From positions 7,068,014 to 7,132,013 of the forward strand of contig OY743169.1 in NCBI GenBank assembly GCA_963555705.1: a stretch of DNA of 64,000 nucleotides. The letters run 5' to 3'. Shown here piece by piece: positions 40,881 to 46,064 of this stretch. The notes under the pieces are model-generated. The model was not told the origin of the DNA and did no database searches. It saw only the letters and a list, made by a program, of their open reading frames with translations. The DNA is from Ligustrum vulgare (lineage: Eukaryota; Streptophyta; Magnoliopsida; Lamiales; Oleaceae). Position numbers and translations under genes: made by a program. Every line of letters starts with the position of its first letter. The first letter of the stretch is position 1.

Positions 40881-41019
40881 CTAGTTGAATTTACGTGCGT
40901 TGCACGAAACAATTTATATATGTATTTATTCGCGTGGGATTAGTACTTAAAAAAATTATTATTTGCGAGTATATATTAAGTAACATGAATGTTGGATTAT
41001 AATCTATTGTTTCAATTTG

Positions 41020-42075
41020 ATGTGAGCACTTCACACAAGAAAAATCTGCATTGTAACCCATTCATAATTAACACTTCCATAATCATGAGTTGGTGCACAA
41101 AAGAACCTGTTCACAGAGTTTTTTGCTTACCAGGGTTTTGGCAACAAGAAGAATTCTAAAATGAAAACTTCACATAAACATAATACTAAAGTTTTACAAA
41201 CATAGCAATTGAACTAAAAATAATCAGTAGTGTTGACCACAAAATCCGGCTGGACCTTAGACCAACACGTCTCAGCTCCTCCCTCTTGAACACGTGGATC
41301 TCCTGCGCACTGTGACAAACAATCAGCTTGCAAAGGGGGCCGAGGTGGCTCCCGTTTGCACTCCGATGCCAAAGTCAGCGGCCATGTTTAGCAAATATAA
41401 TTTGAGTGCGGAAAATATAAGTGCGTAAAAGAGAGAAAAGGTAGTGAGAGTATGAAATTGCTAACCCCTTTCTTGGAGGCAAGTGTGCTCTATTTATAGA
41501 AGGATTCGTTGCCCTGGATTGTGACACGTGGCGAACTTTTACACGTGTATTCACCCTAGCTCTTGAAGGGGATAACCTTGCTTTTTGACCGTAATCATTG
41601 CTACATTTCATAGGGGATGGACGTCTGTCACATCTTGGTAAAGGCAGTGTCAGATCTCTGACTTCATCCCTTGTCCCATCCTTGCATCCGAGGCGCTACC
41701 ATAAACACCTCGGCTAAGCATAAAGTGAATCTGCTAGACACAAACTAGTTCGGCCAGAGGGGCTCGTATGTCATTCCACCTCGGCCATTGGCCCAGGTGT
41801 GATATCTTGAACTTCTAATCATGGGCTAAAGTTCGTGTACCCTCATTGGGCCTTCACTGGTGGCCCAACGCGTCATATTTTGGGTACGATCTCAACAAGT
41901 AGCATGCAGTGTAAAGCACTTCATAGAAGAAAAATCAGGATTGCAATCCATTCACAATTAACATTTACATAATCATGAGCTGGTCCACAAGAGGAGTAGT
42001 TCACAGAGAGTTTTACAAAACAGACATATGGTAACCAGGGAAATTTTAAAATGAAAACTTGACATAAATATAAAT
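41020..42075. repeat. About 190-bp duplicated segment flanking the solo LTR
   Basis: 41020-41215 and 41903-42075 are diverged copies: both carry 'aagaaaaatc..gattg/gcattg', 'ataatcatgag' and 'aaaatgaaaactt'. They probably form a tandem duplication at the Helitron 3' side into whose junction the LTR element inserted. Confidence 0.65.
41231..41897 (-). mobile_element. Solo LTR with 5-bp target duplication
   Basis: 667 bp starting TGTTGACCAC and ending GATCTCAACA, flanked by AGTAG on both sides (41226-41230 and 41898-41902). A TATAAATAG on the minus strand near 41490 suggests the LTR reads leftwards. No internal retrotransposon sequence is present, so it arose by LTR-LTR recombination. Confidence 0.88.
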
Positions 42076-42197
42076 CCAATTCAGATGTTCAAACTGGTGA
42101 TTTTTCATCATCATTTAAATACAGCACCAGTGGCAATCAAAAGATCAAAAATATATTGTTCATAATACAAAAGAAAAAGAGTCTTGCCCAAGAAATT

Positions 42198-43712
42198 CTA
42201 ATCAAGTTTATCAGTCGATTTCTTTTTTGTTGGAAACATTGCAACATCAAGTGAGAATAAAGTCCTTTTAGCTGGAGGCGATGATGAAGAATGACCAATA
42301 GTAGTGACGCATCAGGTGTGTTTGGAACTACTGAAGAGCTATCAACAGTTGTCACTATATGAGATTGCTTGAACTTACTTGGGACATATTCTTCAAGGGA
42401 AACAACTTCAAATTTTTAAACAGGCTGGGAAGTTGTCACTTGTGCCTTTCCACGATCACCTGTACTGTGTGACATTGGAATCACTTTTATGTAGAAAATG
42501 TACTGATCTTCAATTTTCAGCCTTATTTTTTCCATCATTGATTCTCTGTAAAAAATGATTTGAAGTCATAAGTGTAAATATTTGTAGACAGTAAGTGATT
42601 GTCATCATATAAAAAATGGCATGATCATAAAGAAGGTGCTGACCCCTTTAGAAATTCCCATCAATTTAAAAGCTGAGCATTGTAGATAATCTTCTGCTAT
42701 TTCTCCCATGACTGAGGCTAGTAAAGTTCCAGTCTCATCCTCTATACGAATTTCGGCTCTTGCTCTAATGAAAAAATAATAAGGATCAATTGAAATGGAA
42801 GATGTGTGGTTAAAAAGGAAGAATGTTATTAAGTTATAGTAGGAAAATGATGACTGTATTGAAAAAAACAATAGGAGTATTATCTTCTATGAGTATATAA
42901 CTAAGGTTTATATAAATTGACGAGAGAGAAACCTGGGGATTGCTGTTACATTAGTTGTGTTACAATAGAGGAAATCATAGTTTTATCCGACGGTCATGGC
43001 ACAAGAAGATCTAAAACAAAGGTTACAACTCATGTACCAAAATGGAGAGGTATTCATGTTCACTGTTGCTCAACCTTTAACCCAAAACTAAGTTTGATGA
43101 AACTGCAACAAAATGTATTGATTAATTCATATCATATCATAGATAAATAATGTATTGCTTCAGGAATAAAAATTGATACAGCTGTGGTATATAAATAACT
43201 TCAGAGAATTTGAAGAAGTCATTTATGGGGAATAAAAGTTTACTGTAAAAGTTCGAACAGCATTAGTAATGACCCAAATATATTAGCTGAAATATGTGTT
43301 AAGCTTGTATATTGATTAGAAAATAATTATGTTTTTCTTATATCTTATAATACATAAAATGCAATATTTTGTTCCAACGATAAAAAATGGAGGGGGGGGG
43401 GGGGGAATTAACCTAATATATTTAAATTTTTTAAAAAATAGTAAGAATGAAAAACAAAATGTTTTCTTTTTTAATTTTTTTTTTTTTTTTTTTGCTATTA
43501 TAATAACTTATGTTTTTTTTAAAGAAGACATTAATTTCATAAGGAAGAATATGTGTAATGAGATATATAAAAATGTGTATAAATAAAAGTTTATATATAC
43601 TTACTCTTTGTCCATCAATACTATATCTTGCACAGTAGTAAGGTTTCCAACTTTTGTGTAAAATGGTCTCTTTGATTTCACATCAAGTACAATTGCAATA
43701 TAACCTAAAAAA
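42198..43712 (-). pseudogene. RPA70-like single-strand DNA-binding protein pseudogene (Helitron-borne)
   Basis: Minus-strand pieces in RPA1 C-terminal order. 43606-43712: GYIAIVLDVKSKRPFY and VQDIVLMDKE. About 42905-43070: WYMSCNLC ... YCNTTNVTAIPRF, a decayed zinc-ribbon of the third OB fold. 42645-42766: ARAEIRIEDETGTLLASVMG. 42198-42546: IRLKIEDQYIFYIKV, then a basic tail (SPPAKRTL, FPTKKKSTDKLD) with stop at 42198-42200. An in-frame TAA after TTSQPV, a frameshift near 42280 and further stops show it is dead. RPA-like genes are a usual cargo of plant Helitrons. Confidence 0.8.
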
Positions 43713-44803
43713 AAATGACAAAACATTGACCATCAATTAATGATGTATATGTGTAACTATACAAATGTGTTCTGTTTTCATAAATATACAATAATAGAAT
43801 AATAATAACAATATATAATAACAGTATAAGTTATAATAATAATAAAATAGATAGAAGAATATGGAAAAAGTCTTTAATGAAGAGTGTATATATAATGAAA
43901 ACTGTTTTCTTATCTTATGACATAAAGAATATGATATATATGTCTGTAAGATTTTTAGTTGATTGAATATATATGGATATTAATAAATAAAGTTATGTGA
44001 AAAAAATAATAATTTACAAGTTTAGATAGTCTGAATGTATACTGTATACTGTGCAACACACAACTTCACTTGGGAATACTATTACTGCCCTTCTGTTGCA
44101 AGAGCATAAACATCTTCACTTGTTCTCATTTAGTTCATATATATATATTTGCCTTAATATCATACAATGAATCTTTACCACACCTGAATAAATATAAATC
44201 AACCTTAAATTTATATTACATAAAAAGTAAAAAGTAATTAACAATATATATAACGAGAGAGATTTGATCTCACGAGCAATAGTACTTGGACTATGCTAAG
44301 CAACCCGTCAGCGTCGCTTAGAAGTTAGAAGATTAAATCTTCCTTCCTCTAAATCATAAGTGCAGGTTTACATTAAAGACCAAACTTCCTTTGGTTCTCA
44401 CTATACATACGCCTGTACAATTTAGCAAGGCGAGCTCTTTTCCATCAATGCTATCGTAGGTCCTGGTTATTTACAAGTTCAATTCAATAGTTTCATATTT
44501 TCACAATTACACATTATTGAGTGTCTCTGTTACCATTGCCAGAGTACTGCAGCATGCTATATTTTCCCTGGAAAAATTGATTCCACATTTAATCCTAGAG
44601 CAAAACCAAAATCTATGTGTACTTTAATTGAAATGAGAAAACAAATCTTCTAAAATATTAATACTACTTGAGTGTCTCTATACTCTTTATTCACCTTCTT
44701 GGCAATTAAAAATATTACAGACCAGCAGCAAGGCAGCATAGTTTCCAAGATAGAGAATAATAATGACACTGATGCAAAGTAAACAAACACATCTTTCAGT
44801 TAC

Positions 44804-45304
44804 CTAACGCAATCGCAGAAGCTGCAGAATTTTCTTGGTTTGTGGATGCATTGCATTGATACTGTAAAATTTAGAAGTTTGACGTAAGCACGCAAGCATG
44901 CTGAAAATTCAGTAACTGCTAATTTAAATTACTTACCCACGAATTCTAATAATAAATAACAGCTTAGCCTCAGGATTAACATAAAAGCCCCCCTTCAATC
45001 TGGCCTCGCGCTTCATACGAATCAGCTACTTCTCCTAAAAGAAGAAATATGATCAAAATTATCAAATACACAAATGGTTTAAAATTGGTTCTGAGAAAGA
45101 CATAACAGAATTAAAACGCACATGTTCTGTGTACTCCTTTGCATACTGCTCAGTTTTCTTGAAGATCAACTTACGGTTCTCAGCTTTCTTCTTCTTTGTA
45201 GTTTCAAATTCTTGTTTAGTTGCAATGGCCCATTCCTCGTTCCTCTTCTGCTTCTTCAAAACAGACTCCGGAACTACTACACCTCCCTTAGCCACCTCAG
45301 CCAT
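44804..45304 (-). pseudogene. RPL7: Truncated ribosomal protein L7 (RPL7) pseudogene, exons 1-3
   Basis: Exon 1 (45122-45304) encodes MAEVAKGGVVVPESVLKKQK ... ENRKLIFKKTEQYAKEYTEH, the N-terminus of plant uL30/RPL7. Exon 2 (44937-45034) reads LIRMKREARLKGGFYVNPEA and LLFIIRIRG; its third codon is TAG (45026-45028) where relatives have GAG. Exon 3 (44804-44861) reads INAMHPQTKKILQLLRLR and ends in TAG where relatives have CAG. The remaining half of the protein (IFNGVF... onward) is absent from the window. Splice sites are still recognisable, so it derives from a genomic copy, not a processed transcript. It lies wholly inside Helitron E, in the same orientation. Confidence 0.88.
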
Positions 45305-46000
45305 CTCTATATCATGGCAAAAAGATGAAAAAAATAAATAAAGAGAAGAGAAGAAAAACACAGTAATACATTTTTCGGGAAAACCCTTTTTGCTGATAAA
45401 CTCATAACCAGGTAAAATAAATAAATAAAAAGATCTACACAAGAAAACAAACGAAAAAACCAAGATCAACAAAGAATGACTGTCGACGAGGACAAAGGAC
45501 GAAAATCATAACCCTAAACCAGAGGGAAAACACAGATCCTGACCAAAAAGCTAAAAATAAATAAACGATAAAAAAATCTAACCATCGACGGCAAGAAACG
45601 ACGGACGTAGCACTCCCACACACGAACGACCTGCAACCGCGACTGCATCAGGAGGGGGGGAATCGGGGGAAAAAACACACAAATATATACACAAACGGTA
45701 AAAAAAATACAGAGATCTACATAGAAAACAAAAGATGAAAAAATACGAACCTTTGATGATATCGGTATACGACGGGCGTGGTAAACCTAGTAGAAGAAGC
45801 CTCTTGAAGAGAAGAAAACTCTCGAACAGAGAGAGAGAGACAGAAAAGGCAAGAGAGAGAAATGGAGGAGAGTGTGCATCTGTATGGCTGTATATGGAAA
45901 AAAAAAAAGGAAAATCGGAGGAAAAGTGGAAAACAAAGGACAAATACCAAATACCGAAGGAAAGAAAATAAAGGCTGGAAAAACGCGTTTCAGTCCACAA
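45305..46000 (-). other. Captured RPL7 leader and upstream DNA
   Basis: Purine/pyrimidine-biased DNA upstream of the RPL7 ATG, with probable 5' UTR introns and a GA-repeat near 45830. It probably comes from the donor RPL7 gene's leader and promoter, carried inside Helitron E. Promoter activity is unknown. Confidence 0.45.
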
Positions 46001-46064
46001 CTGAAGTCGCTATTTTTCGTCCTGGAACAGTAATTTTACAACTTGATTTTATATATAGTAGGGA

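What the first reader, a model, noticed from the sequence alone, without database searches (positions are those of the whole stretch)
40881..46064. Non-autonomous Helitron carrying the 5' part of a ribosomal protein L7 gene with its leader
Both Helitron ends are readable (A|TCCCTACTATATA on the right; hairpin plus CTAG|T on the left), and exons 1-3 of RPL7 with splice sites and upstream DNA lie wholly inside. An RPA-like pseudogene lies in the same orientation. The RPL7 piece stops cleanly after exon 3, as gene capture would leave it. It could move a strong housekeeping promoter next to other genes; here it lies between EngB and AP-4 beta. Ends and exons are seen in the sequence; capture is inferred.
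Basis: partly seen in the sequence, partly recalled or inferred. Interest (0 to 1): 0.75.

Follow-up and report, generated by a model that had tools for sequence, protein, structure and literature searches.

The report
Helitron with a captured RPL7 fragment
A plant jumping element of the rolling-circle (Helitron) kind picked up the first three exons of a ribosomal protein gene and spread them to other chromosomes; this is a well-documented kind of event, but here the exons sit behind the element's own leader and not behind the ribosomal gene's promoter.

Summary
The host genome holds a second full-length copy on another contig (L010): same ends, different flanks, 3.4% base differences, and without a 667-bp solo LTR that later entered the window copy. 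The RPL7 piece occurs in seven places besides two intact RPL7 genes (exon 1 is lost in one); six distinct copies form one clade (99/97), the intact C9 gene being nearest, so one capture was amplified. Main correction: the leader is not RPL7's. The match to the C9 gene starts 43 bp before the ATG and ends 756 bp into intron 3 (window 45347-44048). The element's first 0.7 kb recurs, with a putative splice donor, in related Helitrons without RPL7, two of them with Rep-helicase. So RPL7 exons lie behind the Helitron's own leader; no RPL7 promoter is carried. The window copy has two stop codons. The RPA-like pseudogene is most likely the Helitron's own. New member of a known kind. The target site without the element was not tested.

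The parts
40881..46064 (-). Helitron, 5' end at 46064, 3' end at 40881; between A and T of the host
   Evidence: second full-length copy L010 with same ends
46052..46064 (-). 5' terminus TCCCTACTATATA, preceded by A
   Evidence: the preceding base is A in 10 of the 10 leader-bearing starts that matched the motif (the starts in L030 and L032 did not match it)
40894..40906 (-). 3' hairpin CGTGC-AAC-GCACG, 9 nt before CTAG
   Evidence: identical in L010, L029, L034, variant in L028+L035
40881..40884 (-). 3' terminus CTAG, followed by T
45348..46064 (-). Helitron's own 5' region: pyrimidine-rich leader; putative 5'UTR intron starts at 45750 (donor ATCAAAG|GTTCG)
   Evidence: 72-80% in L027-L034, which lack RPL7; AAAG|GTT in 12 of 12 aligned rows, the whole motif in 10 of 12; no match in 12.8 kb upstream of either intact RPL7 gene
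44048..45347 (-). captured RPL7 segment: last 43 bp before ATG, exons 1-3, introns 1-2, 756 bp of intron 3
   Evidence: 88% to the intact gene on C9; junctions
45122..45304 (-). RPL7 exon 1 (61 codons)
44937..45034 (-). RPL7 exon 2; third codon TAG, seen in this copy only
44804..44861 (-). RPL7 exon 3; last codon TAG, seen in this copy only (not readable in L016)
42379..43704 (-). RPA-like pseudogene, exons 43704-43605, 43102-42933, 42764-42644, 42545-42379, with stop codons
   Evidence: borders, frames; PF08646 1.2e-5 on the hand-spliced reading, below the family's cut-off; same order in L010, L011, L012 and L028+L035
41231..41897 (.). solo LTR (TGTTG...CAACA), 5-bp target duplication AGTAG at 41226-41230 and 41898-41902
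   Evidence: absent from L010, which has one AGTAG there
41025..41183 (.). 159-nt direct repeat, copy 1
41915..42073 (.). 159-nt direct repeat, copy 2 (79%)
   Evidence: the pair is also in L010

Best explanation
The stretch is a Helitron that lacks its own Rep-helicase. It belongs to a family of this genome whose other members carry Rep-helicase or RPA genes behind a shared 5' leader. In one ancestor a 1.3-kb stretch of a genomic RPL7 gene, from the end of its 5'UTR intron to the middle of intron 3, came to lie between the Helitron's own leader and its RPA gene (shown by sequence). It probably took the place of the Rep-helicase part (inferred). The chimeric element then moved to several chromosomes (copies shown) with enzymes supplied by relatives (inferred), and the copies decay separately (shown). 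If transcribed, the Helitron's leader exon would be spliced to the captured RPL7 acceptor just before the RPL7 ATG (inferred); in the window copy the reading stops after 63 codons (shown). It does not carry the RPL7 promoter.
For: Ends shared with a full-length second copy with different flanks. Nine genomic matches to the RPL7 piece: the window, six further places with Helitron leader, leader tail or RPA parts beside it, and two genes with exons 4 onward. Six Helitron rows set apart from both genes with 99/97 support (L012 left out as identical to L011). Leader shared with eight RPL7-less relatives and not with the two RPL7 genes. Junctions placed to within about 20 bp, the left one in a pyrimidine tract. 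Rep-helicase in L032: PF14214 1.2e-15, PF05970 6.5e-31; L027 matches its four frames at 73-89%. No match to it in the window element at 1e-5. RPA exons in the same order in L010, L011, L012 and L028+L035. dN/dS 0.36 to 1.70 in nine of ten Helitron pairs (one undefined) against 0.10 between the two intact genes.
Against: No host target site without the element was seen; that query did not complete. No single fetched element holds leader, Rep-helicase and RPA together, so 'took the place of the Rep-helicase' is not shown. Only the window and L010 were seen with both ends. The search for further RPL7 genes did not complete (last try), so the donor could be a third gene: dS to the C9 gene is 0.11-0.15 against 0.00-0.11 among copies, and dN/dS of the copies to the C9 gene is 0.16-0.38. 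Transcription is not tested. The RPA reading is below Pfam's cut-off and PDB and protein searches found no relative.
Confidence: 0.92

Rival explanations
1. One reading: the RPL7 promoter and leader were captured with exons 1-3 and can drive neighbouring genes.
For: The 5' region looks like a plant leader: pyrimidine-rich, with a putative intron donor, and the acceptor before the ATG is RPL7's.
Against: No match beyond 45347 in 12.8 kb upstream of either intact RPL7 gene, while the two genes match each other upstream at 63% over 780 columns. The leader is in eight RPL7-less Helitrons.
Confidence: 0.04
2. Two independent things: an RPL7 duplicate lay here first and Helitron ends flank it by chance or by nesting.
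For: Ends in one window are short motifs; further Helitron-like starts lie near some copies (L016, L029, L031, L033, L034).
Against: The order leader, RPL7, RPA, 3' end recurs in L010 on another contig with 153 differences in 4461 sites.
Confidence: 0.02
3. Capture through another carrier (Pack-MULE or retrocopy).
For: Both are known in plants (recalled; Pack-MULEs also in a passage of PMC8232201).
Against: Introns are kept. One search lists no GC-containing inverted repeat pair around the piece. The full-length copies end at Helitron borders.
Confidence: 0.01

Closest known systems
Gene-fragment-carrying non-autonomous Helitrons of maize and rice (PMC2575219 and PMC3288121, passages seen)
   Same: Helitrons with pieces of host genes, several exons for some, multiplied after capture. 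Ribosomal protein gene pieces are listed in PMC2575219 (S8, S22 in maize; S12 in rice).
   Different: Donor is RPL7; host is another plant, probably of the Lamiales.
DHH_Mothra of rice and its putative mother element (PMC4683698; abstract, results part 1 and section 14 read)
   Same: Helitron with an RPA-like gene and no Rep-helicase; gene fragment in derivatives; Rep-helicase expected from a sister family.
   Different: Here the RPA gene is broken and the host fragment lies directly behind the leader. Relation by termini to Mothra was not tested.
HelibatN3 with captured NUBPL promoter (PMC4778049, abstract and passages seen)
   Same: Helitron with host gene 5' part, coding start and a splice signal.
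   Different: There the host promoter and a splice donor were captured; here the promoter side is the Helitron's and the captured signal on that side is an acceptor.

Membership tests
Helitron | 5' TC and 3' CTRR ends, insertion between A and T, no target duplication | tested here: met
   window and L010 junctions; definition in passages of PMC6591975
Helitron | GC-rich hairpin of 16-20 nt, 10-15 nt upstream of the 3' end (PMC6591975) | tested here: met
   hairpin 13 nt before the end, but only 13 nt long: 5-bp stem, 3-nt loop
Helitron | multiple copies with the same ends and different flanks | tested here: met
   338 candidates, 40 scored, for the 5' 235 bp; L010 full length
Helitron | Rep-helicase in the element or in a relative | tested here: met
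   not found in the window element; present in relatives L027 and L032
Helitron | target site without the element | not tested
   joined-flank query did not complete. EngB-2 is AT5G11480 and AP4B is AT5G11490 in Arabidopsis (passages), which suggests old neighbours
Plant Helitron RPA gene | RPA-type DNA-binding domains | tested here: inconclusive
   PF08646 1.2e-5 but below cut-off; no PDB or protein hit; exon of relative L028 gave no Pfam match
RPL7/uL30 gene fragment | match to uL30 with conserved exon borders | tested here: met
   exon 3 ends at the same place as in the two intact genes

The most novel reading that the evidence does not exclude
The capture made a working chimeric transcription unit: the leader that related Helitrons have before their Rep-helicase, with its splice donor, joined through the host gene's own pyrimidine tract and acceptor to the RPL7 start codon. 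Such a join inside a leader intron could be a recurrent way in which these Helitrons swap their first gene for host exons, and transcripts of the seven places could feed small RNAs against RPL7.
Probability: 0.12. Interest if true: 0.55.

Novelty: new member of a known kind. Interest (0 to 1): 0.33.

Why it matters
It gives a well-bounded capture in one genome: a probable donor gene, both junctions, a second full-length copy, and relatives with Rep-helicase. That lets one ask which side supplies the promoter after a capture. Here it is the transposon, not the housekeeping gene, which warns against inferring promoter capture from a leader that merely looks right. For the host it is one more decaying gene fragment, 334 bp upstream of the EngB start codon.

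Tried and rejected
Ends alone as proof: the window-only tests are suggestive but were made after the fact, so copies were needed. RPA relatives by protein search: none of 553 and none of 95 candidates passed. Whole-frame Pfam scans of the element missed the RPA piece and so are weak evidence for lack of Rep-helicase; I used tblastn with a relative's Rep-helicase frames in their place. Protein tree with 12 other plant sequences: no starred fork, one fork at 91/91 not involving the window. Exact 3'-end pattern in viral contigs and 5'-end pattern in genome contigs: 0 matches. CpG depletion as an age signal: dropped, because the parts have different origins. Rfam: nothing at gathering scores in the window. 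Pfam on three reading frames of other family members: none. Promoter motifs in the leader: no full telobox or site II with the patterns used; one AGGGTTT at 45387.
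Full report
What was claimed. A Helitron from 40881 to 46064 that carries RPL7 exons 1-3 with the RPL7 leader, plus an RPA-like pseudogene, between EngB and AP-4 beta.

Anatomy in the window. On the minus strand the element starts A|TCCCTACTATATA at 46064 and ends with the hairpin CGTGC-AAC-GCACG, nine bases, and CTAG|T at 40881. RPL7 exons lie at 45304-45122, 45034-44937 and 44861-44804 with GT/AG borders. They match Pfam PF08079 at 1.9e-24; the best PDB match is a plant uL30 at 5.9e-51. 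The third codon of exon 2 and the last codon of exon 3 are TAG. Of proteins of 0.55 to 1.75 times the fragment's length, the best named relatives are from Striga, Vitis and Olea; Striga and Olea suggest a plant of the Lamiales, weakly (best 120 of 331 listed). An RPA-like pseudogene lies at 43704-42379 in four exons; part of its spliced reading matches PF08646 at 1.2e-5, below the family's cut-off. A 667-bp solo LTR with target duplication AGTAG lies at 41231-41897, between two 159-nt direct repeats.

Copies in the genome. The host genome (1.385 Gb, 51 contigs) answered only two searches. The RPL7 piece has nine matches: the window, six other places with Helitron parts beside it (C6, C17, C11 twice in inverted orientation, C15, C4) and two genes (C9, C11) that have the later exons. 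The C4 copy has lost exon 1. The C17 copy (L010) matches the window from 46065 to 41898 and from 41230 to 40870, so it has the whole Helitron and no solo LTR. Its termini are the same and its flanks differ. With the LTR left out, 153 of 4461 aligned sites differ, gaps not counted. This confirms the ends and indicates that the LTR came later. The other copies were not followed to both ends.

One capture. In a tree of the 501-base RPL7 piece (8 rows; L012 left out as identical to L011) a branch with 99/97 support sets the six Helitron rows apart from the two genes; the C9 gene is the nearer one by branch length (rooted only for drawing). The copies carry different defects: the window's two stops, another stop shared by L011, L012 and L013, and other changes. 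Among five Helitron copies dN/dS is 0.36 to 1.70 in nine of ten pairs (the tenth has no synonymous change), against 0.10 for the two intact genes; L012 and L016 were not in this count. To the C9 gene the copies give 0.16-0.38, as expected if much of that divergence arose while the donor was still a working gene. The numbers of changes are small and stop codons count as changes of residue.

The leader is the Helitron's. Against the C9 gene with 12.8 kb upstream, the element matches only from 45347 to 44048; against the C11 gene only from 45314 to 44747. A sensitive comparison of the leader gave only the 48 bases around the ATG in C9 and nothing in C11; an earlier one with a looser cut-off and no low-complexity filter gave short pieces that I take for chance. 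In contrast the first 235 bases of the element gave 338 candidates in the genome, of which 40 were scored. I fetched eight that match through to base 235 (L027-L034); several others of that kind were not fetched. All eight carry the leader at 72-80%, seven of them down to 45346-45318 and one (L034) to 45483, and none carries RPL7 in the fetched stretch. At the putative splice donor AAAG|GTT is kept in 12 of 12 aligned rows and ATCAAAG|GTTCG in 10 of 12. L027 and L032 have Rep-helicase reading frames, in several pieces, behind it. The left junction falls in a pyrimidine tract near 45347-45365 and the right one near 44048. In L028 plus L035 the match to the window resumes at 44041, with RPA exons and the 3' end following. 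So the RPL7 piece is 1.3 kb long and lies between two Helitron parts.

How it probably works. The order leader, RPL7, RPA, 3' end in the window and L010, and leader, Rep-helicase in L027 and L032, suggest that the host piece took the place of the Rep-helicase. No fetched element shows leader, Rep-helicase and RPA together (the stretches end about 9.4 kb after the start), and L028 has 5.8 kb of unassigned DNA there, so this step is inferred. Read-through past the 3' end, shown for Helraiser (PMC4778049, abstract and passages), would put host DNA at the 3' side; here it lies behind the 5' leader, so an internal exchange or repair event fits better (inference). Movement would depend on Rep-helicase from relatives, as proposed for rice Mothra (PMC4683698). 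L013 holds the RPL7 block with a short leader tail inside a body like L032, so the block seems also to have been shuffled between Helitrons.

Surroundings. EngB starts at 40546 on the minus strand and AP-4 beta at 47625 on the plus strand; the element lies 334 bp before the EngB start codon (Pfam for both). In Arabidopsis EngB-2 is AT5G11480 and AP4B is AT5G11490 (passages), so the two are probably old neighbours. That the RPL7 genes lie elsewhere there is recalled, supported only by a search listing with their numbers.

Against my reading. The RPA assignment is weak by score; protein and structure searches found nothing, and a relative's exon gave no Pfam match. The site without the element and the list of all RPL7 genes were not obtained. 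The dS of 0.11-0.15 between Helitron copies and the C9 gene exceeds the 0.00-0.11 among copies, so the donor may have been a third RPL7 gene.

Known or new. Plant Helitrons with gene pieces are common, and pieces of ribosomal protein genes are among those listed for maize and rice (PMC2575219, passages). An RPA-bearing Helitron without Rep-helicase is described in rice (PMC4683698). Promoter capture by Helitrons is described in bats (PMC4778049). A search for Helitron with ribosomal protein L7 and gene capture found 0 papers, which says little. I file it as a new member of a known kind.

Noticed in passing
window 41231-41897: Solo LTR with target duplication AGTAG inserted in the Helitron; the empty site is preserved in L010.
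   Followed up: yes
window 26430-35738: Gypsy-type element, minus strand: 492-bp LTRs (96.3% alike), gag, reverse transcriptase and integrase domains in several reading frames.
   Followed up: partly
window 46547-47408; also 9232-10463 and 11937-12156: Repeat with imperfect inverted repeats near its ends beside the Helitron's 5' flank, with relatives in the window at 77-89%.
   Followed up: no
window 24668-25835 and 6607-7755: 1.2-kb direct repeat pair, 83% alike; nature not studied.
   Followed up: no
L011 and L012 (C11:12368689-12386675): Two RPL7-Helitron pieces, identical over the RPL7 part, in inverted orientation about 6 kb apart, a palindrome-like arrangement.
   Followed up: partly
L013 (C15:38217165-38226185): RPL7 block with leader tail inside a Helitron body like L032, a sign of shuffling between Helitrons.
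   Followed up: partly
L014, about 1.4 kb upstream of the RPL7 ATG: A variant hairpin plus CTAGT (CGTGCATCGCACG) upstream of the intact RPL7 gene on C9, possibly the 3' end of a different Helitron.
   Followed up: no
L028 with L035 (C2:27324500-27340300): 10-kb relative with leader, RPA exons and 3' end but 5.8 kb of unassigned DNA in between, perhaps another capture.
   Followed up: partly
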